A stretch of DNA of 32,356 nt from Akkermansia muciniphila (GTDB lineage: Bacteria; Verrucomicrobiota; Verrucomicrobiia; Chthoniobacterales; Chthoniobacteraceae), in the NCBI GenBank assembly GCA_945883955.1, contig CAMCYN010000014.1, positions 1 to 32,356 on the forward strand, given 5' to 3'. Each line of letters begins with the position of its first letter. Position 1 is the stretch's first letter. The position numbers were made by a program, and so were the translations under genes. Of this stretch, positions 8,901-21,760 are shown piece after piece. The notes under the pieces are model-generated. The model searched no databases. It was not told where the DNA came from and saw only the letters and a program-made list of their open reading frames with translations.

Positions 8901-9131
8901 GATCCCTGGTGGAATCCGGCCGTGGAAGCGCAGGCAACGGACCGCGCACACCGGATTGGGCAGAAGTCAGTAGTGACCTCCTATAAGTTTATTACGAAGG
9001 GGACTGTGGAGGAGAAAATCCTTCAGCTTCAGGGCAAGAAGCGGGCATTGATGGATGCGTTGGTGGATAGTGAGCAGCCACTTATGGACGGTCTGTCGCT
9101 GGATGATCTTGCGGGACTTCTGGAGGGGTGA
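5973..9131 (+). CDS. SNF2-family helicase with SWIM zinc finger
   Basis: This 1052-residue SF2 ATP-dependent DNA translocase has an N-terminal SWIM zinc finger (C66-x-C68...C78-x-H80, in LCTCRDSRVRGLICAH), a long middle region without a recognised fold, and a C-terminal Swi2/Snf2 motor. Motor motifs are clear: ADEMGLGKT (motif I, about 615), LDEAQHIKN (motif II, about 708), LTGTPVENS (motif III), LLFSQFSSMLDLLQ, LISLKAGGVGLNLTAAD (motif V), and DRAHRIGQ (motif VI, about 990). The bacterial family of this layout is common but its cellular role is largely unsettled; remodelling of protein-DNA complexes or RNA polymerase recycling are the usual guesses. I took the ATG at 5973 because the product then starts MLLTERILSDAGG just before the SWIM region. 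This ATG lies inside the last codons of cimA, which suggests translational coupling. Confidence 0.93.
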   Translation: MLLTERILSDAGGWQVLKQAKALHGMGRVRDVVWAEPLLKGVVREGETEYRSGLKIISRSNLENLCTCRDSRVRGLICAHSVAVGLELLNPAPKTVSVPAGAPASGASSASSSGTKVATLSANPVSDSPKPWGFSLDGGSPVELFVVIPPNLAQSAARGSVSLGIESVFQGKRTLLSALDPRGAYRCSREDLRLLEALVRLQPGGPLPGMLALPLESALGVIEALTGHPRVSLGRQGPLSVQAEPLRPTLFADSRPNGDLALRCEVPAGGALLHGKKAAWMFRDQTLRPVCPGLPAVYLELLRGEVVLPGPAVARFLQQEWELLSRSFECEKVRLPEISEAKPVASALGDTAPKPLFSLSLEGSLNFLSGKLEAAYGDFKTTLSSRAPGTRPRNGVLEEVALARLVDYGFGRPDAEGQMVMRGELPILEFFARHLPALRKEWRVEIGARFAHVTRGIERIEPKLEVKGSGEDWFELDVALATSGGERYSGAEIQRLIQTGRSHIKRKDGSVAVFDPNLLDEFQQVLRDCDPQQKQAGRYRIANRQAGFLQAFAEENGAELAAPAHWKQWATASRKVEALRPIGLGPLEELLRSYQKQGVYWMHFLAENGLGGILADEMGLGKTVQALAFMRSLKGRCLVVAPSSLLTNWEREAQRFLPGIRVLVLAGAKRHERLASELGTAELVITSYPLLRRDIEWYRGENFAAVVLDEAQHIKNPESQNAQAAFQLRADRRFVLTGTPVENSVRDVWSLLNFVMPGYLGTRADFKERYELPISQDPGGVEHRRMIKRLAPFVLRRTKKAVASELPDKIEQVVWCELSKAQRETYAKLVDLTRREVSKAEGLKNQGQARMLMLTALLRLRQACNDLRLLGGDFAQEAGSAVPDSGKLEALEELFSEAQEGGHRVLLFSQFSSMLDLLQQWMEARNVDFCRLDGSTRDRTAQVDRFQTGTVPVFLISLKAGGVGLNLTAADTVIHYDPWWNPAVEAQATDRAHRIGQKSVVTSYKFITKGTVEEKILQLQGKKRALMDALVDSEQPLMDGLSLDDLAGLLEG

Positions 9132-9204
9132 GGTGGCGAAGATTTGAGGCAACAGAGTCATTGTCTTCCGCTTCGTAGTTTCGATGCAGCAAGGCGTTTG
9201 TGGT

Positions 9205-9232
9205 CTTGCTCGGAAGGTCGTGAGCAAGTTTT
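9205..9232 (+). terminator. possible Rho-independent terminator after the helicase gene
   Basis: A perfect 7-bp stem, CTTGCTC (9205-9211) and GAGCAAG (9222-9228), encloses a 10-nt loop and is followed by TTTT at 9229-9232. It lies 73 nt after the helicase stop and 88 nt before the TPR gene, where a transcript end is expected. The stem is only moderately GC-rich and the T-run is short. The remaining bases of the 9132-9320 gap show no gene I can support. Confidence 0.4.
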
Positions 9233-9320
9233 ACGCGGGGGTCAATCTTGGGAAGGAATTTGGTGTACTTGATCCCGCAGATGCTTTTATTAGGACGTTT
9301 CAATCAAAGATTTCGCACTT

Positions 9321-12275
9321 ATGTCCTCTCCCCAGGAAAAAGCGATACCGCGGAGCACTTCTGATTTTGCTTTGGCTGTTAAGCCCCCGAAATTGAGTGT
9401 CTTTTCGTATCCGATAGAGCTTCGCGCAAGCCTCCGCTTTGCGCCCCTGGCATTGGCGTTATTGATGCCGGTCTTGGCACTGGGACAGGGAGCTGCACCC
9501 CCTAAACCCGAAGAGCAGGCTGCCGCGCTGAATAGCCTTTATCAAAAGTCAATGGAGTCCTTCGGCAAGGGGGAATTCAAAGAGTGCGTTGCTGGCTTGA
9601 GGGAAATGCTGGCTAAAGGCGCCGAAGGACCGGGAACGGAGAGTGTTTATTTTACGATAGCCGCCGCGCTTTTCAACCTGAAGCAGTATAAAGAGGCGAA
9701 AGCTGCTTTCGAGGAGTACAATACGAAATATCCGGCAGGGACTAAACTGATGGAAGCCCAGACAGGAATCGGGCAGTGCCAGATGTCCCTCGGTGACAAA
9801 GAGGGGGCAGTGAAGACGTTTGCGGATATGGCGCAGAAGCCTGGGGTAAACAAAGAAAAGATGCTCCTTGTGCAGGCTAATCTGCTCAAGGAGATGAAAA
9901 AGACGGATCAGGCTCTGGCCTTGTTGCGGCCTGCCGTTACCGGTGTGCTTGGCTCTGAGGAATCGGTGCAGTTAGTCAGCCTTCTCGCAAGTTTGGAGGT
10001 TACCGCCGGGGACGCAGAGGCAGCCTTTAAGTTGTTGAGCTTGCTGTACCGTCGCTTTGATGTTGTTGACAATCCTCTCCAGGTGAATGGTTTGGCCTTT
10101 GAAATTGGAGATGCTCTTTTGAATAAGAAAGACTTCAAGCAAGCCCTTCGCTCTTACTCGTTGGTGAGGCGAAAAGACGATGTTCTAGCCTTACAAAGGC
10201 AGAAGATGCAGACGCTAGTGAGCCGTTATGACGCCAGCTTGGCTGCAATCCGGCAGACGCCGGACAAGCTTTCGCAGTTACAGTCGAGCCTTGTGGATTT
10301 GAAGGCTCAGTTCGAAGAGGGGAAAAAGGTTTTGGAGGACGTTGAGAAGGCCGACGACTATATGATGCCGCTGCGTTTCCGTCAGGCGCGAGCCTACCAG
10401 GAACTCAAAAGGCCTTGGGGAACGATTGTATTGTTTGAGTCTTTGCTGAAGGGAGACGTCAAAGGGCAGGCCCGGGAAGACATGATGTTCAGTATCTGCG
10501 GTAGCCAGTCTGATCTAAATAACATTAAAGGACTTAATCAGGCCCTGGACGCATATCTAAAAGAGTTTCCTGAGGGCAAATATGCCAATGAGGCAAACCA
10601 CATGCGGGCCGTGCAGTTGCTTCAGTTAAACGACCTTCGTGGAGCGGAGACGTTGTTTGGATCGGCTATTAAGAACAACACCGCCGGAGAGCGCCGGGAG
10701 TTCACCCTCTTTTTACTGGCAAACATCCGGTTCGGATTGTCCGAGTGGGACAAGGCTTTGGAGGCCTACGCGGATTATTCAAAGAGTTATCCAAAGGGAG
10801 AGCACCTCGAAGAGGTGAGCTATCGTGGCTCCCTGTCGCATTTCTTTAAGGGGGATTATGAGAAAGCCCTTGCTGGATTTGAGACGTATTTAAAGGGCAA
10901 TCCTGATGGCACTTTTGCGCCTGATGCAGGCTATCGTGTTGCTGCCTGCTATATGGCGGGACAACGCGCTATGGACGTGATTGCGCGCTGTCAGGCTTGG
11001 GCGAAGAATTACGGATACCACCCCTTAATGTCAGAGGTAATGTCGCTCCTCGGAGATGCCTATGCCTCCCTGGACAAACGGGAGGAGGCTGCGGACGCTT
11101 ACTTCAGGGGATTGCAACTAAATGCGACCGACGAGGTGCTCAACTACCTGTTGTTTGAAGCAAACAAGCAGTACCAAAAACTGGGTCAGTGGAATAAAAG
11201 CACTGAGCTTTTTAAGAACTTCATCGAGCGGAATCCAAAACATCCGGCGGTTGTTGCTTCGATGTTTTGGCTTTCCAAAGCCTTGGTGAAAGAGGGGAAG
11301 CCTGAAGAAGCCAAACGGTTTCTGGCTGATAAGATTGCGACCTTTATCAAGGATCGAAACAGCGATGCCGTTGAGCAACTACTGACCCAGCTTGCGCAGT
11401 TCTGTTCCAAAAAGCCTCGGCCACCAGTGAAGGCGCCACCTGCTCCGGGTGAGCCTGAATCCGTCCCTGCGACCGCCGCCGAGCCGCCGCCGTATGATCC
11501 GGAGGCCGAGTTGGACAAGTATTTGCCCATGAAAACGATTGGGACTACCGATCTCGCTCGAGGGCGTATCTTCTTTGCCCGCGCTGAATTGGCTCGAATG
11601 ACACGCAGACCTAAAGACTCGGCGGATTGGATGGATCGTCTATGTAAGGAGATTGGGGCGAAAGACTTGGGTGCTGCCTTGCTTGCGCAGGCTGGCGATC
11701 GAATGCTCGAGCGCAGCGACAAGGCGAAGGCGACGGCGTTTTACAAAGAGTTAATGACGTCCTTCCCCAAATCTGACCTCCTGGATTTCGCGTATAACGG
11801 AATGGGCCAAATTGCGCTGATTGAGGGGAAAAATGATGAAGCATTTAAGTGGTTTGACGATGCTGTTGAGAAAGTGGGGGCGAACGCGAGGTTGAAGGAT
11901 GTGACCCTTGGCAAAGGGAAGGCGTTGTTGGCGATGGGTAAGTTTGATGAGGCGAAAGCTATTTTTGAACAGGTTGGCGCTACTCGCGAATGGAAGGGGG
12001 CGGTGACGGCGGAATCGCTATTTCTGCTCGGCGAAACGGCCTTCCGTAAACAGGAGTACGCCGTTGGCTTACCTCACTTTCAAAGGGTGGCTGTAGCCTA
12101 TACTCGGTATCCATCAATCGTAGCGCGTGCGTATCTGCGTGCGGCAGACTGTTTTGAAAAGATGGGTGATGTCGAGAAAGCGAAGGCACACTTGGCCGAA
12201 TTGGTCGCAAAAGAAAAACTGGTCGGACTTCCTGAAGTGGAAGTCGGCCGCAAACGGTTGGAGGCTACGCAGTAA
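9321..12275 (+). CDS. large exported TPR-repeat protein of the Exb-type operon
   Basis: This 984-residue protein is built almost entirely of tetratricopeptide-like helical pairs. Examples are AAALFNLKQYKEAKAAFEEY, SLSHFFKGDYEKALAGFETYL, GDRMLERSDKAKATAFYKEL and GETAFRKQEYAVGLPHFQRV, each with the usual small/aromatic/Ala/Pro spacing. Near residues 696-735 a proline-rich linker (KKPRPPVKAPPAPGEPE) separates two TPR arrays. The N-terminus holds a signal-like segment (FAPLALALLMPVLALGQG, about 40-57), so it is probably periplasmic or outer-membrane facing; the preceding 38 residues are long for a signal peptide and an in-frame TTG near codon 25 may be the true start. It resembles YbgF/CpoB and BamD-like TPR scaffolds in context but is far larger. 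It opens a tight operon with ExbB/ExbD genes, only 2 nt before the next gene. Confidence 0.85.
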   Translation: MSSPQEKAIPRSTSDFALAVKPPKLSVFSYPIELRASLRFAPLALALLMPVLALGQGAAPPKPEEQAAALNSLYQKSMESFGKGEFKECVAGLREMLAKGAEGPGTESVYFTIAAALFNLKQYKEAKAAFEEYNTKYPAGTKLMEAQTGIGQCQMSLGDKEGAVKTFADMAQKPGVNKEKMLLVQANLLKEMKKTDQALALLRPAVTGVLGSEESVQLVSLLASLEVTAGDAEAAFKLLSLLYRRFDVVDNPLQVNGLAFEIGDALLNKKDFKQALRSYSLVRRKDDVLALQRQKMQTLVSRYDASLAAIRQTPDKLSQLQSSLVDLKAQFEEGKKVLEDVEKADDYMMPLRFRQARAYQELKRPWGTIVLFESLLKGDVKGQAREDMMFSICGSQSDLNNIKGLNQALDAYLKEFPEGKYANEANHMRAVQLLQLNDLRGAETLFGSAIKNNTAGERREFTLFLLANIRFGLSEWDKALEAYADYSKSYPKGEHLEEVSYRGSLSHFFKGDYEKALAGFETYLKGNPDGTFAPDAGYRVAACYMAGQRAMDVIARCQAWAKNYGYHPLMSEVMSLLGDAYASLDKREEAADAYFRGLQLNATDEVLNYLLFEANKQYQKLGQWNKSTELFKNFIERNPKHPAVVASMFWLSKALVKEGKPEEAKRFLADKIATFIKDRNSDAVEQLLTQLAQFCSKKPRPPVKAPPAPGEPESVPATAAEPPPYDPEAELDKYLPMKTIGTTDLARGRIFFARAELARMTRRPKDSADWMDRLCKEIGAKDLGAALLAQAGDRMLERSDKAKATAFYKELMTSFPKSDLLDFAYNGMGQIALIEGKNDEAFKWFDDAVEKVGANARLKDVTLGKGKALLAMGKFDEAKAIFEQVGATREWKGAVTAESLFLLGETAFRKQEYAVGLPHFQRVAVAYTRYPSIVARAYLRAADCFEKMGDVEKAKAHLAELVAKEKLVGLPEVEVGRKRLEATQ

Positions 12276-12277
12276 AA

Positions 12278-13066
12278 ATGAAGAGGGCTCTATTTTGGTT
12301 GAGCGTTCTGGTTGCCTTTGCTTGCGAGGGGATTTGCGAGGATGTCTTTCTTAAGGATGGTAGTGTGGTCCGGAATGTAGGGTTACGTCGTGAAGGGGCA
12401 TTTGTTTTTGGAAAACCCGAAGGTGGGCAGGATATTCTGATTCCAGCCAATACGATCGTGAGAATTGCCTTCCGGGAGTCTGGGGGATTGCGAGATGCGC
12501 GTGATGGCAACTATGCCGCAGATAGTCGGACGGTGATTGATAACACCGGGGCGGAGATGACTTATCACAAGACATGGATCGATATACCAGGGAGCATGTG
12601 GCCTACGCTTATGCGCCTGCGTTTACCGGCTTTGATTGCAGCAGGCCGGACTAGTGACCTTGACGACTTGCTGAAGGATTGGACACCCACGGGCGATCCT
12701 GAGTTGGACGCTGCGGTTGCACTATTAAATCTAAAGCGCTCAGGGGCAGGTAAACCGGAATTGCAAAAGGCTTGGAAGGCCGCAATTGAAGGTAATGTTG
12801 GTACCTTGAGCGCTGCAATTTCGTGGATTGAGCTGGGGAATGAGGCCGCAGAAGCCAAGGATTGGGACACCGCCATCCGTTACTATGTTTCTGTGCAGGT
12901 TTTTGCCCCCAATTGGAGACCATTGCACCCCTTGGCGCTTATGGGTGCGGTAAAGGCTTGTCTTGCCAACGAACAACCGGGTCAGGCGATTCCCTTCTCC
13001 GACGATTTGAAGACTGAATACCCTCGGTCTTCGCAGGCAAAGGCCGCTGAGAAGTTGGTAAAATAG
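12278..13066 (+). CDS. exported protein of the TPR/Exb operon, unknown function
   Basis: The 262-residue product starts MKRALFWLSVLVAFACEGICEDVF, a short signal peptide ending near a cysteine or alanine, so it is likely periplasmic or possibly lipid-anchored. After it, EDVFLKDGSVVRNVGLRREGAFVFGKP is a beta-rich segment like those that start many verrucomicrobial and planctomycetal exported proteins. The C-terminal half (GNEAAEAKDWDTAIRYYVSVQVFAPNWRPLHPLALMGAVKACL) reads as one or two TPR-like helical pairs, matching the larger TPR protein upstream. The gene starts 2 nt after that protein's stop and ends 46 nt before exbB, so all are probably one transcript. No catalytic residues are visible; I infer an accessory or scaffold role in the Exb-type complex. 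Confidence 0.8.
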   Translation: MKRALFWLSVLVAFACEGICEDVFLKDGSVVRNVGLRREGAFVFGKPEGGQDILIPANTIVRIAFRESGGLRDARDGNYAADSRTVIDNTGAEMTYHKTWIDIPGSMWPTLMRLRLPALIAAGRTSDLDDLLKDWTPTGDPELDAAVALLNLKRSGAGKPELQKAWKAAIEGNVGTLSAAISWIELGNEAAEAKDWDTAIRYYVSVQVFAPNWRPLHPLALMGAVKACLANEQPGQAIPFSDDLKTEYPRSSQAKAAEKLVK

Positions 13067-13112
13067 CCCGTCCGTCCTTTCTAATTCACAAACTAAACCT
13101 GACTCGTAACTT

Positions 13113-13949
13113 ATGAAGAGATTCGTAAAACCCGTACTTGTGGCGCTCCTCGCTCTTTCCGCCGTTGTCTGCAGTCCCGAAGCCAACGCCGCGGAGGAAA
13201 AGGCCGCTGCCGCCGTCCATAACAAAACACTTTGGGAACAGATTCACGAAGGCGGTTGGGTTATGATTCCCATCGGGATCTGTTCGGTCCTAACGGTATA
13301 TCTATGCGGGGATGGGTGGATCCGAACTTCGCAGAAACGGACTTCCCCTCCGGTATACGAAACGGAATTAAAACGCCTCTTCCGCGAAGGCGATTACGTT
13401 GGAGCTTACAATTTCTGTAAGTCAAACCCTGCGCCCATGACCAATGTGTTCCGGTCCGGTATCGGGATGCTTGGAGAGGGAAAATCAGCCGTTGAGGAAG
13501 CGATGGTGGGGACAATGCATCAGGAAAGTTCAAAACTGAACAGCTACATCAGTTACCTTTCGGTTATCGGGGTTTGTACGCCGATGATCGGGTTGCTTGG
13601 AACGGTTACTGGGATGATCAAGGCGTTCGCGAACTTGGGAACTTCGGGGATCGGGGATCCATCTGGACTGTCGGCCGCTATCGGTGAGGTTTTGATTGCA
13701 ACGGCGAGTGGGCTGCTCATCGCTATTCCTGCGTTCACCATGTTCTACTTCCTGCGTAGTCGTGCCAGTCACTCCCTGCACCATATTCAGGATCTTATGC
13801 AAGAAATGTTCCGTAAAATGCCTTATGACCATATGTCCGGGTTACATATCAGTGGTGAGGAAGTGTTTGCTTCGATGCCTAACTGGATAGAACACCATGA
13901 AGAGGCGCATGTGCAGGATGCCGGGCACGAAGAGGTAGCCGCGCACTAA
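13113..13949 (+). CDS. exbB: ExbB/TolQ/MotA-type proton channel subunit
   Basis: The 278-residue product belongs to the inner-membrane motor family that uses proton flow to energise envelope machines. It carries an apparent cleavable signal (VLVALLALSAVVCSPEANAA). TM1 is at about 47-66 (GGWVMIPIGICSVLTVYLCG), a cytoplasmic loop includes the typical alternating charged helix (EEAMVGTMHQESSKLNSYISYL), TM2 is TPMIGLLGTVTGMIKAF and TM3 is GEVLIATASGLLIAIPAFTMFYFL. These last two are the family's signature blocks. The C-terminus is His/Glu-rich (HHEEAHVQDAGHEEVAAH). A signal peptide before TM1 is found in ExbB variants of several phyla. The two ExbD genes directly downstream are its expected partners. 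Whether the complex serves a TonB-like, Tol-like or other process is open. Confidence 0.93.
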   Translation: MKRFVKPVLVALLALSAVVCSPEANAAEEKAAAAVHNKTLWEQIHEGGWVMIPIGICSVLTVYLCGDGWIRTSQKRTSPPVYETELKRLFREGDYVGAYNFCKSNPAPMTNVFRSGIGMLGEGKSAVEEAMVGTMHQESSKLNSYISYLSVIGVCTPMIGLLGTVTGMIKAFANLGTSGIGDPSGLSAAIGEVLIATASGLLIAIPAFTMFYFLRSRASHSLHHIQDLMQEMFRKMPYDHMSGLHISGEEVFASMPNWIEHHEEAHVQDAGHEEVAAH

Positions 13950-13970
13950 AAAAATGGGACATCTTTAAAA

Positions 13971-13976
13971 AAGGAG
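13971..13976 (+). promoter_or_regulatory. strong Shine-Dalgarno for the first exbD
   Basis: AAGGAG at 13971-13976 sits 7 nt before the ATG at 13984 and fixes that start. It stands out because most genes in this window have no recognisable Shine-Dalgarno, which suggests that translation of this subunit is set independently of exbB. Confidence 0.8.
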
Positions 13977-13983
13977 TAACCCT

Positions 13984-14445
13984 ATGGCTGGAGGAGGAGG
14001 AAGTATTGAGTCGGGAGAACCCGACTTCCAAATTGCACCGATGATCGATGTGTTGCTGGTGATGCTGATCTTCTTCATGACGATCACCTCGGCCCAAGTG
14101 TTGCGCATCGACAAGAATATCAAATTACCAGTCGCCCAAAACGCAGCGCGTAAAGACAGCAGTCGGGCGGAAGTCATTATTAACGTTCGCTGGGATGCTG
14201 ATCTTCAGAAGGCTGTCTTCACCTTCGATGACAAGACTTATGACACTACGGCAGAATTCCTTCCGGCACTTCAGCTAGCCAAAGAGGCGGCCGAAAAACA
14301 GATCTCTTCGACTCAGAATCCCAATCCGCGCGTCGTCATTCGGGTCGATAAGGAGGCCCCGGCTCTTTATGCCTCCCAGGCGATGAATGCGGCCGCTGAG
14401 GCGGGAATTGCGGATATCTCGTTTTCTACCGTCAACCGCGAATAA
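13984..14445 (+). CDS. exbD: ExbD/TolR-type stator protein, first copy
   Basis: The 153-residue product has the standard layout: a short cytoplasmic tail, one membrane helix and a periplasmic domain. The helix is IAPMIDVLLVMLIFFMTITSAQVL (about 17-40), with the conserved proton-carrying aspartate in PMIDV. The periplasmic part ends in a family-like segment (RVVIRVDKEAPALYASQAMNAAAEAGIADISFST). The tail contains a run of glycines and serines (MAGGGGSIESGEPDFQ). A good Shine-Dalgarno precedes it and a second, dissimilar ExbD follows after 3 nt. Paired ExbD genes behind one ExbB suggest a heterodimeric peg, as proposed for other Exb-type systems with two ExbD proteins. Confidence 0.93.
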   Translation: MAGGGGSIESGEPDFQIAPMIDVLLVMLIFFMTITSAQVLRIDKNIKLPVAQNAARKDSSRAEVIINVRWDADLQKAVFTFDDKTYDTTAEFLPALQLAKEAAEKQISSTQNPNPRVVIRVDKEAPALYASQAMNAAAEAGIADISFSTVNRE

Positions 14446-14448
14446 TCC

Positions 14449-14889
14449 ATGAAAAGTTTCGTTGAGGAAGAGACTCCTGCTGGTGGTTTTCAGATCGCAC
14501 CGATGATTGATGTCGTGTTCGTTATCATGCTGTTTTTTATGGTGATGGCGGGTGCGGTAAAAGTTGAGAACGAGCTGAATACGACACTTCCCGGAAGTAC
14601 TGAGACGTCTTCTGCAACGGACTTCGTGGATGAAATCACGATCACCATTTCCGAATCAGGCGAGGTGGCTTTGAACGACGAACCTTTCGATTCGCCCACA
14701 AGTGCCGACCTCAAAAACCTGCGCGACACGCTGATGCGTCTGAAGCAGAACGCTGACAACGCAAAAACTCCTTCGGTGGTGACGATTGTGAGCGAACCGC
14801 AGGCGAAGTATCATCGGACGGTAGCGGTGCTTGATGCATTAGCGGCCGCAAAAATTGAAACAGTCACCTTTAGCGTGAGCGACGAATGA
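14449..14889 (+). CDS. exbD: ExbD/TolR-type stator protein, second copy
   Basis: The 146-residue product has IAPMIDVVFVIMLFFMVMAGAV (about 16-37) as its only membrane helix, with the same essential-type aspartate in PMIDV. The periplasmic domain follows (ITITISESGEVALNDEPF ... VVTIVSEPQAKYHRTVAVLDALAAAKIETVTFSV), matching the ExbD fold more canonically than the first copy. Outside the helix the two copies differ strongly, so this is an old duplication rather than a recent repeat. It starts 3 nt after the first exbD stop and its TGA overlaps the next gene's ATG in an ATGA, so translation is probably coupled. Confidence 0.93.
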   Translation: MKSFVEEETPAGGFQIAPMIDVVFVIMLFFMVMAGAVKVENELNTTLPGSTETSSATDFVDEITITISESGEVALNDEPFDSPTSADLKNLRDTLMRLKQNADNAKTPSVVTIVSEPQAKYHRTVAVLDALAAAKIETVTFSVSDE

Positions 14890-16256
14890 GTTCGCACAAC
14901 CAGTTCCAACAAGCGGCGCAAGCTGCTCAAGAAGCAAAAGCTCGCGCAAAAGCAGCAGAAGAAGCCGCAGAAGCTGCGGTAGAGGCAGCTGCGCTATCAG
15001 CTGCACCTCAGGTGTATGTGCAGGCTGCTTTGCCTCCGCCAGTGAAATTGTCGTTGTGGCAGAGGATTTTGAATAAAGGAGGCAGCTTCCTTTTCCTGAG
15101 TATCGTTTTCCATTTGCTCCTGCTGGCGGGAGCGGCGACGTACGTGGTCCAATCTATACACGCGAAGGAAAAGCTCAAATTCACGGGTAAACCTACGCTG
15201 GGGGCTCCGGGGCAGAAATCGTTGGAATATAAAGTTCAGACTGTAAAGCGGAACCAGTCGATGAGCAGCGCACCGGCTGCTTCCACTCGCCTGACCTCAA
15301 CGGCTAGTAATGTCAAAGTGGCAATCCCTGATGCTCCGCTGACGACCTCGTCTTCGTCTGCCATGCCCTCTATGATGGGGGGGATGGGGGGGTCCTCGTT
15401 TGGTGCAAGCGGAGGGGGAGGCGGGGGAGGCGGGGGAGGCGGAATAGCAGTTGGCGGAGCAATGGCAGCCATGCCTGCGGCCGGATTTACCGTATTTGGC
15501 TTCAAGGGAAGCGGAGTAGGCCGCGGGTTGTCTGGACACCTCTATGATCTCAAGCAGGACAAGGATAGAAAGCCCACGGAAGGGGACAGCAATGACAGGG
15601 GCTATGTATTGAGGTACCTACGGAATTTCGATGAGAAAAGGTTTGATATGAAGTTGCTGCAGCCATTCTTTGTCTCTCCTGTGGAGCTTATGGCCACGCG
15701 CTTTTGGGTGCCGAATGGACCTGCCTCCCAAATGCCCCAGGCCTTCAATGTGGAGAAGGATGTTAAGCCAACATCCCTTTTAATTCATTATAAAGGAAAG
15801 GTGAGTCCACCCAAGGACGGAAAGTATAGATTTGTCGGCTTCGGAGATGACTTTTTAGGCATTAAGCTCAATGGAAAGGTGATTCTACCCTTTGATCGAC
15901 CTGGAAGCCGCATTTACGGGACTGATGCCACAGGTACAGGCGCGTTTTATGCGAATACCAAAAAAGGGCACGCAGTCAGTGACCCGGTGCTGCTTCGTGC
16001 GGGGCAACCTGTGGATCTGGAGATTATTCTGGTGGAGTGGCCGGGAGGATTGATGACTTTTAGTCTTTTGGTGGAGCGGGAAGAGGATCTACGGGATGGA
16101 AAATATAAAAAGACATCAAACGGATTGCCAATCCTTCCGATTTTTGAAACCGACATTACTGCTGCCATTCCGGAATACGAAGACAAGCCAGGAACGCCGA
16201 CGCTACTTCCTCCGCGAGATCCGAATCGTATGATGTGGAAGGTACTCCGAGAGTAG
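14886..16256 (+). CDS. single-pass membrane protein with PA14-like C-terminal domain, in the TonB position
   Basis: The 456-residue product starts with an Ala/Glu/Lys-rich helix (about 8-40, probable coiled coil). It has one membrane helix (GSFLFLSIVFHLLLLAGAATYVV, about 66-88), a long low-complexity periplasmic stretch with Ser/Thr, Met-Gly and an 11-glycine run (176-186), and a C-terminal globular domain. There, GLSGHLYDLKQDKDRKPT, SLLIHYKGKV, PPKDGKYRFVGFGDDFLGIKLNGKVIL and the later SDPVLLRAGQPVDLEIILVEWPGG fit the PA14 beta-barrel pattern of sugar- or ligand-binding domains. The N-in, single-TM, flexible-linker design and the place after exbB-exbD-exbD match TonB/TolA energy transducers, but I see no TonB C-terminal domain. 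Energy transduction to a PA14 domain is therefore an inference. Its start overlaps exbD by 4 nt. Confidence 0.85.
   Translation: MSSHNQFQQAAQAAQEAKARAKAAEEAAEAAVEAAALSAAPQVYVQAALPPPVKLSLWQRILNKGGSFLFLSIVFHLLLLAGAATYVVQSIHAKEKLKFTGKPTLGAPGQKSLEYKVQTVKRNQSMSSAPAASTRLTSTASNVKVAIPDAPLTTSSSSAMPSMMGGMGGSSFGASGGGGGGGGGGGIAVGGAMAAMPAAGFTVFGFKGSGVGRGLSGHLYDLKQDKDRKPTEGDSNDRGYVLRYLRNFDEKRFDMKLLQPFFVSPVELMATRFWVPNGPASQMPQAFNVEKDVKPTSLLIHYKGKVSPPKDGKYRFVGFGDDFLGIKLNGKVILPFDRPGSRIYGTDATGTGAFYANTKKGHAVSDPVLLRAGQPVDLEIILVEWPGGLMTFSLLVEREEDLRDGKYKKTSNGLPILPIFETDITAAIPEYEDKPGTPTLLPPRDPNRMMWKVLRE
15414..15440 (+). repeat. 9-bp tandem repeat encoding polyglycine
   Basis: GGGGGAGGC occurs three times in perfect tandem at 15414-15422, 15423-15431 and 15432-15440, inside the Gly-rich linker of the PA14-type protein. 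Each unit adds three glycines and keeps the frame, so slippage would change linker length, not switch the gene off. Confidence 0.8.
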
Positions 16257-16261
16257 CGGCG

Positions 16262-16282
16262 AAGGATCTACTCGCGATCCTT
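16262..16282 (+). terminator. hairpin after the TPR/Exb/PA14 operon
   Basis: AAGGATC (16262-16268) and GATCCTT (16276-16282) form a perfect 7-bp stem with a 7-nt loop, 5 nt after the operon's last stop. No T-run follows, so it may stabilise the mRNA 3' end rather than terminate by itself. The gap to 16427 separates two convergent operons and holds no gene I can support. Confidence 0.35.
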
Positions 16283-16350
16283 GTAAATAGGAGCGAGTCC
16301 GTAGAACAGCTAAAGCCATTTTCATCTTCAAGGAGGAGGGGGCGGCTTCC

Positions 16351-16379
16351 AACACCTTTTTATAGAGGTGGTTCTTTCT
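16351..16379 (+). terminator. weak terminator-like hairpin between convergent operons
   Basis: CACCT and AGGTG arms pair around TTTTATAG, extended by AAC/GTT with one bulge, and are followed by the T-rich TTCTTTCT. Placed between the plus-strand Exb operon and the minus-strand DUF4340 gene, it could end the plus-strand transcript. The stem is short and imperfect. Confidence 0.3.
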
Positions 16380-16427
16380 GACCTATGCCCCACCTCGTTC
16401 TTATTGATGGGCGCTTAGATGTGGCGC

Positions 16428-18218
16428 CTACTTTGTCAATCTCCTGCTAAGTGTGGTGTGGTCTGCTGTAGACAACAGAAATGTTCCTTCATTTGTTGAG
16501 AGCTTAGAATAAAAGCCCTCATTACCTAAAGGTCTACCGATAGTTAAGGTAACTGTCGAATTTTTGTCGGCCGCATTAATAGTAATGTTGAAGGTTGTGG
16601 TAGCTTGGTCCGCCCCCTGTTCCCCTGATTCCTCTGGAGCAAGCCAACGCGACGTATGAAGTGTGCACAGCGTGCCCAGGATGGCGCGTACAGCGGCTTC
16701 GTCGGGCACTGCGCGGGCGTCAGTGGCGAACTTCCAGCCGGACTCTTTCTTCTCAAGCTTTAGTGCCGAACCTTCCGCCATAATTTCCAGAGAGGAGACT
16801 GTTTCCGGCTTAATTTTTAAAATACCTAAGGGCTGTAGCTGCGCCGAGTGGTACGGGAGCGATTGCAAAAGGTTGCGCGGCGTGGCCAGGATGAATGGCT
16901 CATCCTCAATCTTTGCGTATCCGGTGTCCCCCTCGACGTTCCCAAAGCAAATGGCGAGGATAGGTCGCTCGCCTGCGTGTGTTTCCGCAGTGTTTTCAGA
17001 TGCGTAAGACGAAAACGTCACCTTCATCTGAGGATGTTCCAGTCCGTATTTTGCGAGGTCGGATGCCACATCAGAAACAAAGTTAGTAACTTCCGCAGAC
17101 TGAATGTTTGCAAGGAGCCTAGGGGGAATAGCTTCGTTGATTCGAACTTCTTTGTCTCCTTCCTTCTGAATCCAGCCTTCGCCCTTTCGGATGAGAACGA
17201 TCTTGGGTCGCCTGACGGATTCTATTGTAATCCGGTCGACAATATCACTTTCCACTCGGACTAACTTTCGATCTCGAACATCGTTGGGACGCGCCTTTAG
17301 AAGGGGATCCAACGCTAAGTTTGAAAGGACTGTGACAGCTGGCCGATTGAGCAGCCGGGCGAACGAATGGTCCTTATTTACCTCCCCCAAGGGTGCCGAA
17401 CCGATCTTTAGCGTGATCGGCTCTTTGTCTCCCTCGACGTGAATCGAAATGGTCGCACGGGGTTCGCCGAGGCCTTGTTCAGGAGTGGGGGTTTCCGGGT
17501 AGAACTGGGCGACTTTGGCTGTGAGAATGCTAGCCAGCAGATCGTTTACTTTCTGGTCGGCGGCTCTGGCGCGTAGCGGCTTTACAATCTCCCAGTGGCT
17601 GCTTTTTCGCTCAAGCTCCAGTTCCCCGTCGGGAGTTTTGATTCCGAGCCGGTGGACTTGCTGGAGCTGAATATCTGACAGTCGTTTATCGCGAAACTCT
17701 TCGGGCTTTTTGGCGAGCTGGCTTCGAAGGTTCCCGTTGATGACGAACACGGTGTTGGCGCCCTGTTGGCGAATGTACTGTTTCCCCTCAATGGCGCTGT
17801 CTTTTCCAAGTAGTAGTTCCGCTTCCTTACCCGATTCAGTTCTCACTTTGATCCGCAACTCAGAGTCCGCGACACCGAACTCCTTAAGTCGATCCTTCTC
17901 TTGCGCGGCAGGGACGTCGATTTTGGAGTTATGCTGGAGCGATTCGAGCGTGCTGAGGAGTTGCGAGACAACCAGATCATCGGCGCGATCCTCGATCGGG
18001 TGCTTTAGGCGCCATACCCCGTCTTTTTTGTGCAGTTCAATGGGAGAACCGGCGTTTTGGATGAAAATGGAGGTGATTTTGCCCGGCTCGATGTTGATCA
18101 CACGCGCCGCAGTATCCGCCTTTTCCTGAGTGGACAAGGTGTGGCGTTCGACAAACAAAATGTAGGTCACGAAACTTGCCGCGACGACTGCCAGCGAAAG
18201 GGTGGTGCGCGTTCTCAT
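16428..18218 (-). CDS. DUF4340 domain protein
   Basis: The 596-residue protein has an N-terminal hydrophobic segment (LSLAVVAASFVTYILFVE, about 7-24) that acts as a signal anchor. The remainder is large, extracytoplasmic and beta-rich. Repeated modules of the form 'helix, DGVWRLKHPIEDRADDLVVSQLLSTLESL' and 'SGWKFATDARAVPDEAAVRAILGTLCTL' mark two or more DUF4340 units, each with a short 'W-K/R ... P ... A ... V ... L' pattern and a KLGK/LLGKDS-type turn. DUF4340 proteins are known mostly from their regular place behind GldG-type ABC auxiliary genes, and their biochemical role is not established. Here it is the last gene of that cluster, 48 nt after the GldG-like gene. A role in envelope export or assembly is inferred from context only. 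Confidence 0.85.
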   Translation of the reverse strand: MRTRTTLSLAVVAASFVTYILFVERHTLSTQEKADTAARVINIEPGKITSIFIQNAGSPIELHKKDGVWRLKHPIEDRADDLVVSQLLSTLESLQHNSKIDVPAAQEKDRLKEFGVADSELRIKVRTESGKEAELLLGKDSAIEGKQYIRQQGANTVFVINGNLRSQLAKKPEEFRDKRLSDIQLQQVHRLGIKTPDGELELERKSSHWEIVKPLRARAADQKVNDLLASILTAKVAQFYPETPTPEQGLGEPRATISIHVEGDKEPITLKIGSAPLGEVNKDHSFARLLNRPAVTVLSNLALDPLLKARPNDVRDRKLVRVESDIVDRITIESVRRPKIVLIRKGEGWIQKEGDKEVRINEAIPPRLLANIQSAEVTNFVSDVASDLAKYGLEHPQMKVTFSSYASENTAETHAGERPILAICFGNVEGDTGYAKIEDEPFILATPRNLLQSLPYHSAQLQPLGILKIKPETVSSLEIMAEGSALKLEKKESGWKFATDARAVPDEAAVRAILGTLCTLHTSRWLAPEESGEQGADQATTTFNITINAADKNSTVTLTIGRPLGNEGFYSKLSTNEGTFLLSTADHTTLSRRLTK

Positions 18219-18266
18219 AAACGGAGCTGAGGAAATGGTGGGGAAAATCCGAAGCAGAAAGGCAGA

Positions 18267-19793
18267 TCAATTACGGCGTTTCCAGCATACGATCGCGCCG
18301 AACACGGCGACCAGACCGGGAATGAGGCCCATGACGACCAGAGCCAGGCGGCTCATTTGTTGTTCGTTCAAGCTGAGTTGAACTGCCTGTTTTGGCTTCG
18401 GAGGAATGCCGGCAAGCTGTTCTCGGTTAATTAGCCAGTTTAAGGAGTTGATGGCGAAGTCGAGTCCACTCTCAGAGATGCGAATGCCCTCGTTGGAAAC
18501 AAATTCCGAGTTTCCAACCAAGACAAGGCGTGATGTCTCCACCTTCACCCTTGGATCCTCGATGCCGCCCTTTTCGATTGCGACCGCCACTGTAAGTGGG
18601 CCGAGATGATCCTTGTCCGGATCCTTTACGGCTGGTTTCGAGTCCATGCGTACGTACTCTGTTTCTCCCCAGAAGTCTGCGGGACAAAGAAGGAGTGGGA
18701 AGGCCCGGATCTTTTCGATAGTGGATTTGGGGGAAGTCAGCGCGATGGATTGACTGAGCCCTGCAAGCTGCAGGTCAATTCCAAGCTCAATGTCCTTAAG
18801 AATCGATTTCCCACTCTGCGGAACGACTCCGACGGCTGTTGACACCGTACTAGGGCGAACAGCTGGTTGCCCGTTTTCCAAAACCAACATACTCGCTGTA
18901 CGCACGATAACATCCTGCTGTGGTATAATTCCCTGATTCGCCAGCCAATTTACCAAGCGTGGGGCCTTTGCTGCGCCGCCTAGAAAGAGGAAGATACGGC
19001 CCTTTCTCTCATTCCAGTAATCAGTGAGGAGAGTGAGCTCGCGTTCGGAGAGGTCACTGTGCGGCCCAAGCACCACGATGGCTGAGGCGTCAGCAGGGAC
19101 GGTATCCACATTGTTGAGGTTAAGTGTTTCGATGCGGATATTTTGTCGCTCAATAAAAGCCTTAAACTCCGTAGAATTTTGTCCAGTGATGGCCGATTCA
19201 CCGTGTCCGGAGAGGGAATATATTTTATTTTGTTTCTCTTCCGTAATTTCGAGCAGGGCAGAGGTGAGCGCTTCCTCGCCCTTAAATCCGCGGACGACAG
19301 GGCTCTGCCCTATCACGGTTGCGGAGTTTTCCATGACGGCCATATCCACTGCGTTGACGAATTTCGAACGCCCTTCGTAATCGAGGATAACTATGTTGTC
19401 GTTGTTCCCGAACTTATACTTCTCGGAAAGTTCCTTGGCCCTTAGCAGGTTTCGATAGGGGTCAACCACTTCAACAGACAGGGATCGTCCGGAGGCATAC
19501 TCATATTCCCGAAGCAGGGACGCGACGTCTTGGGCGATGGCCTGGGCGCTGGGGAAAAAGACGATGGCTTTTACGGGCTTTTTCAAGCCGGACAACAGGT
19601 TCTTCGTGAGCGGAGCGAGTGCAAACTTCTGATTTCTCGAGAAGTCCCAGCGCTTAAAATGCCTGAAATTTACATAGTTAATCATGCCTATGATCGCAGC
19701 GAAAATGGCGATCTGTACCAGGACGTTGAACCCGATATTGATGCGTTTCATTGCGGAGGCGGAGGGCTTGATGGAAGCGGGCGGCTTGTCCAT
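18267..19793 (-). CDS. GldG-like ABC transporter auxiliary protein
   Basis: The 508-residue protein has a membrane helix near the N-terminus (NVLVQIAIFAAIIGMINYV, about 24-42) and another at the very end (LALVVMGLIPGLVAVFGAIVCW), with the large domain between them outside the cytoplasm. Family features include RWDFSRNQKFALAPLTKNLLSGLKKPVKAIVFF (typical 'W/F-D-x-T/S ... L-x-K-P-V-x-V' opening), EVVDPYRNL, the KIYSLSGHGE motif of the ABC-type 'auxiliary' domain, and FLGGAAKAPRLVNWL. These proteins accompany GldA/GldF-like ATPase and permease. In Bacteroidota the set is needed for gliding, but outside them it is widespread with unknown substrate. The permease gene is 20 nt upstream. Confidence 0.88.
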   Translation of the reverse strand: MDKPPASIKPSASAMKRINIGFNVLVQIAIFAAIIGMINYVNFRHFKRWDFSRNQKFALAPLTKNLLSGLKKPVKAIVFFPSAQAIAQDVASLLREYEYASGRSLSVEVVDPYRNLLRAKELSEKYKFGNNDNIVILDYEGRSKFVNAVDMAVMENSATVIGQSPVVRGFKGEEALTSALLEITEEKQNKIYSLSGHGESAITGQNSTEFKAFIERQNIRIETLNLNNVDTVPADASAIVVLGPHSDLSERELTLLTDYWNERKGRIFLFLGGAAKAPRLVNWLANQGIIPQQDVIVRTASMLVLENGQPAVRPSTVSTAVGVVPQSGKSILKDIELGIDLQLAGLSQSIALTSPKSTIEKIRAFPLLLCPADFWGETEYVRMDSKPAVKDPDKDHLGPLTVAVAIEKGGIEDPRVKVETSRLVLVGNSEFVSNEGIRISESGLDFAINSLNWLINREQLAGIPPKPKQAVQLSLNEQQMSRLALVVMGLIPGLVAVFGAIVCWKRRN

Positions 19794-19813
19794 AGATACT
19801 TTTTAACAGGTCC

Positions 19814-20569
19814 TTACGCCTTCCATTTGCGGTATTGAAAAACCTGTAGGTTCATAAAAAGAACCAGTGCGGTCATCGAAACGTACCAGATAATTGGGCG
19901 GCTATCGATGAGTCCGCGAGAGAAGTCGGCCATGTGTTCCACGGCCGAGAAGTAGGCGATAATGTCGCGAACGGCCTGACTCTGTGAGTTAAGAATAAAG
20001 CCCAAAAGGCCCGCCACAAAAGAGCCGAAAATGGCCACAAAGGTCATAACCGCAGCATTGATCTGTTCGCTTGTAAGGGCAGATGCCAAGCAACCCAGAG
20101 CGATATAAAAGGCTCCAACGAGAAGAAGGAACAGGTAGCTTCCACCGAAGGCGCCTGCCGCCAAGGCGGCCTGTTTTCCTGTGATTTCTGTAAATGCGGT
20201 AAAATAAAGGAAACTGGGAGACCAAAGGATGGTGTAGAAAATATAGGCACCAAGGAACTTGGATAGTACCACCTGCCAGTCCTGGACGGGTGCCGTGGTG
20301 AGCGTTTCGATGGTTCCCATCCGGAATTCATCGGCATAGGTCCGCATCGTGATCAGCGGAAAAATTAGTACGAAGGGAAACCAGAAAAGAACGGTATTAA
20401 ATGCCGCTTCCACCACGGTGACTTCCGAAGGGCTCTGATTCAGGAGTGCCACGCCTGAGTAAAAATTGAACCCGCTGGCAATAAGGAAGAAGAAGATAAC
20501 CACATACGCGATTGGGGAGTAGAAGGAGCTCTTCACTTCTCGGCCCAGCAAAGTCAAAAAAACACGCAT
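19814..20569 (-). CDS. ABC-2 type permease, GldF-like
   Basis: The 251-residue product begins MRVFLTLLGREVKSSFYSPIAYVVIFFFLIASG, the standard N-terminus of GldF/NosY-like ABC-2 permeases. About six hydrophobic segments follow, including FWFPFVLIFPLITMRTYADEFRMGTIETLTTAPV, which carries the conserved 'P-x-x-T-M-R ... E ... G-T-x-E-x-L' family signature in its coupling region. I took the ATG at 20567-20569; an upstream in-frame start would add 41 residues that look like translated leader. It lies 35 nt after the ATPase stop, consistent with one operon. Substrate unknown. Confidence 0.92.
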   Translation of the reverse strand: MRVFLTLLGREVKSSFYSPIAYVVIFFFLIASGFNFYSGVALLNQSPSEVTVVEAAFNTVLFWFPFVLIFPLITMRTYADEFRMGTIETLTTAPVQDWQVVLSKFLGAYIFYTILWSPSFLYFTAFTEITGKQAALAAGAFGGSYLFLLLVGAFYIALGCLASALTSEQINAAVMTFVAIFGSFVAGLLGFILNSQSQAVRDIIAYFSAVEHMADFSRGLIDSRPIIWYVSMTALVLFMNLQVFQYRKWKA

Positions 20570-20604
20570 AACAGAAATTGATTTGATAGTAGCAAGAAAG
20601 GCAC

Positions 20605-21534
20605 TTATTCGCCTTGGGTAAGGTCCACAAAGACATCCTCCATGGTAGGTTTTCGTCTGTTTAGTTCCACGAGTGCCCAGTGTTTTTCCCAAGCCATCCG
20701 TAAGATATCCTCCGCAGGATGTGCGTCGGCATCGGTTCTGAGGTGAAAACGTTTACCGTTCTCCGTGGGCTCCTCCGTCACATCTTTCACGCCTGACAGC
20801 TTGGTTAATGCCTCCCGAACGGAGTCGGGAGGGTTGAGTAATTCGAGGGAGATCGCTCCGGCCGCACGATGGTTTCGGAGCAGATTTTCGGCAGTGTCCG
20901 CTGCTCGGATTCGGCCTTTGTGGATCACAATAACCCGGGAACACATCATTTCTACCTCGGGTAGAATATGGGTAGAGATGAGTACGGTGCGCCGATGGGC
21001 TAAATTCTTGATCAATTCTCGCACCTGCCGAATCTGGTTCGGATCAAGACCGATCGTCGGCTCGTCCAGAATGAGTAGGTCGGGATCATGAACCAATGCA
21101 TCGGCAAGGCCCACGCGTTGTCGTTGGCCCTTGGAGAGCGTTGCGATCAGGGCCCGCTCCTTTTCTTGAAGGCTGCACATCTCCAGGACGTCTCCGACAC
21201 GTTCTCTGATATTGGCGCTTTCCACGCCCTTGAGGGCGGCCCGGTAGCGCAGGTATTCGTTCACCCGCATGTCGTGATACAGTGGAGTGCTTTCTGGGAG
21301 ATATCCAATGTGTCGGCGTGCTTCTACGGATTGCTCAAAAATGTCGAATCCTGCAATCGACACACGACCCGACGTCGGGGGCATATATCCGGTCAGAATA
21401 CGCATGGTTGTGCTTTTACCCGCTCCGTTTGGCCCGAGAAATCCGACGATCTCGCCCTTTCTGACTTCGAATGAGAGGTCTTTGATTGCGGTAAAGCCCG
21501 CGTAGCGTTTGGTGAGTTGCTCGACTTGGATCAT
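20605..21534 (-). CDS. ABC transporter ATPase, GldA-like
   Basis: The 309-residue ATP-binding subunit shows Walker A GPNGAGKST (34-42), signature LSKGQ (133-137), Walker B LLILDEP (153-159) and the switch-region STHIL. A C-terminal extension of about 90 residues (for example MEDVFVDLTQGE at the end) is typical of ABC-2/GldA-type exporters. The ATG at 21532-21534 gives MIQVEQLTKRYAGF, the usual start for the family; a start at 21597 would add 21 atypical residues. It is the first gene of the ATPase-permease-GldG-DUF4340 run, 226 nt downstream of a histidine kinase gene with no clear terminator between them. The substrate is not predictable. Confidence 0.93.
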   Translation of the reverse strand: MIQVEQLTKRYAGFTAIKDLSFEVRKGEIVGFLGPNGAGKSTTMRILTGYMPPTSGRVSIAGFDIFEQSVEARRHIGYLPESTPLYHDMRVNEYLRYRAALKGVESANIRERVGDVLEMCSLQEKERALIATLSKGQRQRVGLADALVHDPDLLILDEPTIGLDPNQIRQVRELIKNLAHRRTVLISTHILPEVEMMCSRVIVIHKGRIRAADTAENLLRNHRAAGAISLELLNPPDSVREALTKLSGVKDVTEEPTENGKRFHLRTDADAHPAEDILRMAWEKHWALVELNRRKPTMEDVFVDLTQGE

Positions 21535-21760
21535 AGGGAGGGAGAGGGGGAAACGCGCGCTCGGGCTGAACCGACGCGGGAAAAAAAAGCCTTCCATTCA
21601 TCAAGAGACCGTGGCGAGGAGAAGATTCCGCACTAAACGAACGGCGGAAATGGACTCTGTGACTTGGGGGCCTTGCTTTGATTCCGCAATGCCATGCTCT
21701 GATGAATGGCGGTATAAAGTGCCGATAAAAATTTCTTTGGACTGTAGGAATTTGAGATCT

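What the first reader, a model, noticed from the sequence alone, without database searches (positions are those of the whole stretch)
9321..16256. Exb-type energised envelope operon whose TonB-position gene ends in a PA14-like domain
Seen: six tightly packed plus-strand genes (gaps of 2, 46, 34, 3 and -4 nt) encode a 984-aa exported TPR protein, a small exported TPR-like protein, ExbB, two dissimilar ExbD proteins, and a single-pass protein with coiled coil, low-complexity linker and PA14-like C-terminus. Known: ExbB/ExbD motors drive TonB or TolA through their single-TM partner. Inferred: here the transducer may pull on, or present, a PA14 (glycan- or ligand-binding) domain, with the large TPR protein as a periplasmic scaffold. 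This would be an energised machine distinct from classical TonB and Tol.
Basis: partly seen in the sequence, partly recalled or inferred. Interest (0 to 1): 0.7.

Follow-up and report, generated by a model that had tools for sequence, protein, structure and literature searches.

The report
Membrane motor arm with swappable heads
A bacterium carries what looks like an ion-driven membrane motor whose moving arm ends in a sugar-binding-type (PA14) domain, and in related bacteria the same arm carries one of three unrelated end domains, as if the tip of a tool had been exchanged during evolution.

The parts
9321..12275 (+). 984-aa exported TPR protein (TPR)
   Evidence: ORF; TPR_2 E 6.5e-26; NCBIfam tol_pal_ybgF 6.2e-55; hydrophobic segment at residue 36; a TPR-profile gene upstream of ExbB in 48 of 49 motor operons
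12278..13066 (+). 262-aa exported protein: small N-terminal beta domain, then TPR-like helical repeats (SML)
   Evidence: AlphaFold2 pLDDT 94.1, strands 21-64 then helix pairs; Foldseek best rows BamD (E 5.8e-4) and YbgF TPR (2.9e-3); present in 41 of 49 motor operons
13113..13949 (+). ExbB/TolQ-type motor subunit with an N-terminal export-like segment
   Evidence: MotA_ExbB E 6.7e-26; T164 and T197 kept in 50 of 50 aligned
13984..14445 (+). ExbD/TolR-type subunit 1
   Evidence: ExbD E 2.7e-18; intramembrane Asp (kept in 106 of 106 ExbD-profile hits)
14449..14889 (+). ExbD/TolR-type subunit 2
   Evidence: ExbD E 3.6e-20; intramembrane Asp; the only hit of this type in this genome at E <= 1e-25
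14886..16256 (+). 456-aa single-pass force transducer with PA14-fold head
   Evidence: strongest hydrophobic segment starts at residue 70; S72-x3-H76; matches in 31 of 57 genomes, own included
15036..15389 (+). constant anchor of the transducer: membrane helix, conserved stretch, start of the linker
   Evidence: alignment A1 of 24 sequences; shared with vWA and toroid transducers
15477..16253 (+). PA14-fold head (residues 198-456); D321-D322 align with the DD of yeast Epa6 in a weak profile match

Best explanation
The operon encodes a proton-motive-force-driven envelope machine of the ExbBD/TolQR type. ExbB with the two ExbD proteins is the motor. The last gene is a TonB/TolA-like force transducer: its membrane helix docks on the motor through a conserved His, its linker reaches into the periplasm, and its C-terminal head grips a partner. 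Here the head is a PA14 lectin-fold domain; in relatives the same anchor carries a vWA domain or an alpha/alpha toroid. The two exported TPR proteins are periplasmic partners, perhaps a CpoB-like link to the wall or outer membrane. SHOWN by sequence or prediction: motor residues, the Ser-x3-His helix, PA14 fold, conserved gene order, different heads on one anchor family, and more anchors than motors in most genomes of a chosen set. INFERRED: that the protein moves when the motor runs, that the head is the gripping part, what it grips, and that orphan transducers use the same motor.
For: Motor: the intramembrane Asp in 106 of 106 ExbD-profile hits and two Thr in 50 of 50 ExbB; PMC12204202 passages name these as the proton-binding Asp and the Thr ring; matching to E. 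coli numbering is recalled. Transducer: of 103 anchors, His at the TonB-like position in 95, Ser in 83, both in 82; PMC11658791 calls TonB(H20A) and ExbD(D25N) inactive (passage). PA14 fold; no TonB_C hit at E <= 1. Gene order. Heads: of 102 full-length transducers vWA 60, PA14 30, toroid 12 by an iterated profile; a non-iterated check recovered 30/30 PA14, 12/12 toroid and 53/60 vWA with no cross-hits. L046/L065 and L036/L061 align at 53% and 55% over 87 and 105 anchor residues, with only chance-level pieces elsewhere. In L103 vWA and PA14 copies agree at 132 of 133 residues (144-276) and then diverge. AU tests on the motor tree reject one clade for vWA (p 0.003) and toroid (0.019), and barely for PA14 (0.045). 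In genus mates a motor trio (L207, L208, L210) and the PA14 transducer (L042, L045, L044) lie on different contigs.
Against: No phenotype, interaction or expression data for this organism. The Leu and second Ser of the SHLS motif are mostly Ala and Val, and 8 of 103 anchors lack the His, one of them as an alignment gap. Seven vWA heads failed the non-iterated check; five of these had no Pfam hit at E <= 0.1 and one only a weak one (L154 not scanned); I read all seven and saw D-x-S-like motifs, degenerate in L154. A simple D-x-S-x-[SM] pattern is present in 47 of 60 vWA proteins. The genus mates also have a second motor beside a second anchor (G001:C33, G003:C22, G006:C76), so which motor serves the orphan is open. 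The L103 contig equals in length one titled 'Lentisphaerae' but its motor branches among this window's order: transfer or a binning or assembly error is possible. TPR and SML do not diverge with head changes.
Confidence: 0.75

Rival explanations
1. An energised lectin: the PA14 head binds a glycan (peptidoglycan, outer-membrane glycan or incoming polysaccharide) through a calcium-bound Asp pair, and the motor pulls on that glycan.
For: Closest folds are PA14 sugar-binding domains of bacterial adhesins and yeast Epa/Flo lectins; D321-D322 align with the DD of Epa6 (weak); PMC8092209 and PMC6218569 passages give that DD pair as the calcium and sugar site. In Fibrobacter, adjacent locus tags run TPR, TPR, (one not seen), ExbB, ExbD, ExbD, TonB family, the last four more abundant on cellulose (PMC6851124 passages).
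Against: DD in only 20 of 36 heads; NE in 9, DN in 4, SD in 2 (the own-genome paralogue is one), HD in 1. The second calcium loop was not tested. vWA and toroid heads occur in the same slot and no lectin function is known to me for them. Fibrobacter synteny was read from tables; homology was not tested.
Confidence: 0.3
2. The head is a protein-protein module: all three heads dock on outer-membrane or periplasmic proteins, with the TPR proteins as linkers, making a Tol-Pal-like envelope-stabilising or gliding-type machine.
For: vWA domains usually bind proteins (general knowledge; PMC12204202 says the same); the TPR proteins score with YbgF/CpoB and BamD; one motor plus two different TolR-like subunits resembles AglRQS of Myxococcus gliding (recalled; AglRQS is named as a motor in PMC12204202).
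Against: Among 722 neighbour ORFs, no family outside the six genes recurred in more than 11 of the loci, and that one is a generic ABC-type ATPase (only the 25 largest clusters were looked at and they were not domain-annotated, so Pal, OmpA or Glt genes were not searched for directly). TPR and SML do not co-diverge with heads.
Confidence: 0.4
3. An ordinary TonB paralogue for an outer-membrane transporter whose C-terminus has drifted.
For: TonB position, anchor helix with Ser-x3-His; plug-domain receptors exist in the genome.
Confidence: 0.03
4. A phage-defence motor of the Zorya kind.
For: Shares a MotA/ExbB-family motor.
Against: No PADLOC hit for ExbB, either ExbD, SML or the transducer at E <= 0.01; only a generic TPR model for the large protein.
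Confidence: 0.02

Closest known systems
vWA force-transducer operons of the PVC group (Williams-Jones et al. 2025, PMC12204202; outline and passages seen)
   Same: TPR gene, tolQ-like gene, two different tolR-like genes, and a single-pass transducer with the TonB/TolA-type His and a domain II of about 100 residues. In my sample the homologous anchor carries vWA in 60 of 102 transducers.
   Different: Head is PA14 here. PA14, toroid, squalene, prenyl and cyclase occur 0 times in that main text; head exchange is not mentioned in the passages I saw.
TonB-ExbB-ExbD and TolA-TolQ-TolR
   Same: Motor family, intramembrane Asp and Thr, N-terminal anchor with Ser-x3-His, linker, globular C-terminal head.
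   Different: Two ExbD genes, two TPR-type partners, no TonB_C domain in the head; SHLS only half kept.
AglRQS gliding and sporulation motor of Myxococcus (recalled)
   Same: One TolQ-like and two TolR-like subunits with TPR partners.
   Different: Homology and Glt/Nfs-like neighbours not tested.
Fibrobacter succinogenes FSU_2396-2403 cluster (PMC6851124, passages)
   Same: By locus tags: OmpA, TPR, TPR, ExbB, ExbD, ExbD, TonB family; the ExbB, both ExbD and the TonB family protein more abundant on cellulose.
   Different: TonB-family head; FSU_2399 is not in the passages; sequence homology to this window not tested.

Membership tests
ExbB/TolQ-ExbD/TolR motor family | MotA_ExbB and ExbD domains over curated cut-offs | tested here: met
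   91.0 bits against cut-off 22.9; 66.7 and 72.8 against 25.4
ExbB/TolQ-ExbD/TolR motor family | intramembrane Asp in ExbD; conserved Thr in ExbB | tested here: met
   106 of 106 and 50 of 50; equivalence to E. coli residue numbers recalled
TonB/TolA force transducers | anchor helix with SHLS motif | tested here: inconclusive
   Window has S72 and H76. Of 103 anchors Ser in 83, His in 95, both in 82; Leu and second Ser positions mostly Ala and Val
TonB/TolA force transducers | TonB/TolA C-terminal domain | tested here: not met
   no TonB_C hit at E <= 1; PA14 fold
vWA force-transducer family of PMC12204202 | operon TPR, tolQ-like, two tolR-like, transducer | tested here: met
   window and 47 of 48 other operons gathered; L119 has no TPR hit
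vWA force-transducer family of PMC12204202 | vWA C-terminal domain | tested here: not met
   PA14 head in the window; anchor homologous to vWA members
vWA force-transducer family of PMC12204202 | motor docking of the anchor helix in a complex model | not testable with these tools
   no complex prediction available
PA14 domain (PF07691) | score over the Pfam gathering cut-off | tested here: not met
   15.2 bits against 24 for the window; relatives L103 (24.7) and L054 (24.1) pass
PA14 domain (PF07691) | PA14 beta-sandwich fold | tested here: met
PA14 lectins | consecutive Asp pair that binds calcium and sugar | tested here: inconclusive
   D321-D322 in the window, DD in 20 of 36 heads; binding not testable
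Zorya defence motor | PADLOC Zorya components | tested here: not met
   no hit for the motor genes at E <= 0.01

The most novel reading that the evidence does not exclude
A modular tool-changer: one proton-driven motor serves a set of transducers that share one anchor and linker but end in interchangeable heads (vWA, PA14, alpha/alpha toroid), each pulling a different class of envelope partner. New heads arise by exchange behind the Gly-rich junction, and the PA14 version is a directly energised lectin.
Probability: 0.3. Interest if true: 0.82.

Novelty: new variant of a known kind. Interest (0 to 1): 0.58.

Why it matters
In TonB and TolA the motor and the output head go together. Here the output head looks like an exchangeable part: three unrelated folds on one anchor family, about five head changes on the motor tree, and one contig with neighbouring genes that share anchor and linker but not head. 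That gives a natural experiment on how a periplasmic force transducer couples to its load, and suggests that some PVC membrane proteins annotated only as PA14, vWA or squalene-cyclase-like are motor-driven. It can be tested with swaps in a laboratory strain.

Tried and rejected
Conserved neighbours as a clue to function: the SNF2 helicase upstream and the DUF4340 protein downstream gave no phmmer match at E 1e-3 in the 40 loci (one of them from the window's own genome), so I take them as chance neighbours; the other downstream ABC genes were not used as queries. Clustering 722 neighbour ORFs of at least 110 aa (the 25 largest clusters looked at) gave ABC-type ATPases in 11 loci and a few families in 4-5 loci; a cluster of 53 'new' ORFs at ExbD positions I take to be antisense shadow ORFs.

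TonB-like C-terminus: rejected. Zorya: rejected. Co-evolution of TPR or SML with the head: no signal in 17 operons (permutation values 0.83 and 0.97). A PDB sequence search with the head profile gave only weak hits (best E 0.21, RsgI3), so the fold claim rests on the predicted structure. The SML fold search gave chiefly TPR-type rows. No Rfam family reached its cut-off in the window. Promoter-like sites in 9100-16500 were at chance level, terminator-like sites slightly above it; neither was used.

Tallies and their limits: one search scored at most 15 candidates per genome, so counts of 14-15 are lower bounds, and not every anchor match was checked for its head. The 24-of-30 comparison uses genomes that I chose partly because they had many anchors; motors are ExbD2-type hits at E <= 1e-25, anchors E <= 1e-3; 5 of 30 were equal and 1 (G020) had fewer. 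Of 100 loci examined, six gave no anchor match (L050, L052, L054, L058, L059, L062) and are not in the 102; their PA14-like domains are among the 36 rows of alignment A2. One truncated transducer (L064) was left out of the head count. Phylum neighbourhoods were 60 stretches picked by me from the listed matches, mostly one per genome.

Head changes: 5 with the promoter-proximal head of each operon, 4 without L103, 7 if two-headed operons count as states of their own. The tree is a quick one with SH-aLRT support only; the labels are clustered on it (0 of 200 shuffles as low), and the three single-toroid operons are not (500 of 500).

Literature: (open-licence PMC papers only) listed no paper that I recognised as treating PA14- or toroid-headed transducers; bioRxiv and most subscription journals are not held.

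Full report
WHAT IS THERE. Domain searches give TPR, MotA_ExbB, ExbD, ExbD and a weak PA14. The window is contig C14 of a draft genome of 3.83 Mb in 363 contigs. A scan of named genomes with anchors of relatives gave 20 loci, all with Verrucomicrobiota- or PVC-type titles: 12 Spartobacteria or Chthoniobacter-type, one 'Lentisphaerae', one 'PVC group'. The genome also has 6 MotA/ExbB-family (window included), 5 plug-domain and 3 TonB_C hits, so this operon is additional to a classical TonB system.

THE ANCHOR IS TONB/TOLA-LIKE. The alignment of 24 anchors has an invariant His and a nearly invariant Ser four residues before it in the membrane helix. Over 103 anchors, His is kept in 95, Ser in 83, both in 82. 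PMC12204202 describes the SHLS motif as the motor-docking site of TonB and TolA (passage), and PMC11658791 calls TonB(H20A) and ExbD(D25N) inactive mutants (passage). The later Leu and Ser of SHLS are mostly Ala and Val here. In the motor, the ExbD Asp is present in 106 of 106 profile hits and two ExbB Thr in 50 of 50.

THE HEADS DIFFER. A match to the transducer was found in 31 of 57 genomes of relatives and to the anchor in 82 of 288 genomes drawn from the phylum, own genome included in both. I took 100 neighbourhoods and annotated them with profiles. Of 103 transducers, one is truncated; the other 102 were assigned to vWA (60), PA14 (30) or an alpha/alpha toroid that scores with squalene-hopene cyclase C-domains (12) (Pfam on chosen members). 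That classification was iterated. A non-iterated check with five seeds per class gave 30/30, 12/12 and 53/60, and no cross-hits. The seven unmatched vWA heads are the weak point: five had no Pfam hit at E <= 0.1, one a weak one, one was not scanned; by eye all seven have a D-x-S-like metal-site motif, degenerate in L154. Pairs such as L046 (PA14) and L065 (vWA) align at 53% over 87 anchor residues and only by chance elsewhere; L036 (PA14) and L061 (toroid) at 55% over 105. In L103 two adjacent genes, vWA then PA14, agree at 132 of 133 residues from 144 to 276, through the Gly-rich linker, and then diverge at once; the DNA is 56-59 identical bases in each of six 60-base blocks there. I read that as a shared adaptor kept uniform by conversion or recent duplication. 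Caution: its contig has the length of one titled 'Lentisphaerae', while its motor branches inside the clade of the window's relatives, so transfer, binning or assembly error is not excluded.

ON THE MOTOR TREE (49 operons, ExbB plus both ExbD, quick method), the fewest head changes are five, four without L103, seven if two-headed operons are their own states. AU tests reject a single clade for vWA (p 0.003) and toroid (0.019) and barely for PA14 (0.045). The larger side of the tree (31 operons) is all vWA; the changes lie in the clade of 18 that holds the window. The root is not known, so which head is ancestral is not shown.

ONE MOTOR, SEVERAL TRANSDUCERS. Of 102 transducers, 52 lie in a motor operon, 6 behind a TPR gene without motor genes, 40 have neither upstream on their strand, and 4 are too near a contig edge to tell. 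The window's own genome has a second PA14 transducer with its own TPR and SML but no motor genes beside it (C8, L032) and one ExbD2-type subunit. Genus mates G001, G003 and G006 have an ExbB-ExbD-ExbD trio on one contig and a PA14 transducer on another; each also has a second ExbD2-type subunit beside a second anchor. In 24 of 30 genomes anchors outnumber ExbD2-type motors (selection told under Tried and rejected). Sharing of a motor is inferred from these numbers.

WHAT IS KNOWN. Williams-Jones et al. 2025 (PMC12204202; [quoted passage not shown] function unknown. The window operon is the same machine with another head. That main text does not contain PA14, toroid, squalene, prenyl or cyclase, and seven searches listed no other paper that I recognised as treating it. 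A possible functional lead is Fibrobacter succinogenes, where locus tags 2396-2403 run OmpA, TPR, TPR, (2399 not seen), ExbB, ExbD, ExbD, TonB family, the last four more abundant on cellulose (PMC6851124, passages); homology was not tested.

HOW IT MOST LIKELY WORKS. Protons through ExbB/ExbD drive the motor; the transducer's helix docks on the ring and its linker and head are moved against a partner in the periplasm or at the outer membrane; the head decides the partner. For the PA14 head, a glycan is a fair guess (0.3) and a protein partner somewhat likelier (0.4). TPR and SML diverge no faster when heads change (17 operons), which fits a general role for them rather than a head-specific grip.

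VERDICT. Observation confirmed. Interpretation partly supported. New variant of a known kind, with head exchange as the point of interest.

Noticed in passing
L103:7729-10741: The adjacent vWA and PA14 transducers also carry N-terminal SAM domains (Pfam E 2.2e-18 and 3.7e-16), presumably cytoplasmic; a signalling or oligomerising input to the motor is possible.
   Followed up: partly
L054:6776-9889: A PA14-like domain related to the transducer heads sits at the end of a 1037-aa protein with an acetyl xylan esterase-type domain and no anchor match, so the head family also exists outside motors.
   Followed up: no
L050:2898-4238; L052:4063-5376: PA14-headed proteins that miss the anchor profile but whose hydrophobic segment still shows Ser-x3-His by eye; probably diverged transducers.
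   Followed up: no
window 16428-21597 (-): DUF4340, GldG-like ABC_transp_aux, ABC-2 permease and ABC ATPase genes, convergent with the operon; resembles the gliding-type ABC cluster by recall. The DUF4340 protein had no match beside relatives' operons; the others were not tested.
   Followed up: partly
L130:7358-11709: Three transducers in a row (PA14, vWA, PA14) without motor-gene hits in the 18.5-kb stretch.
   Followed up: partly
L157:14999-17344: A 781-aa vWA-type transducer with two vWA-like stretches by eye, both with degenerate metal-site motifs, upstream of a motor operon.
   Followed up: no
G000:C13 (L215:5131-8942): Another ExbB-ExbD pair in the same genome followed directly by an 841-aa protein with TPR and SML profile matches (2e-29 and 9e-9).
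   Followed up: no
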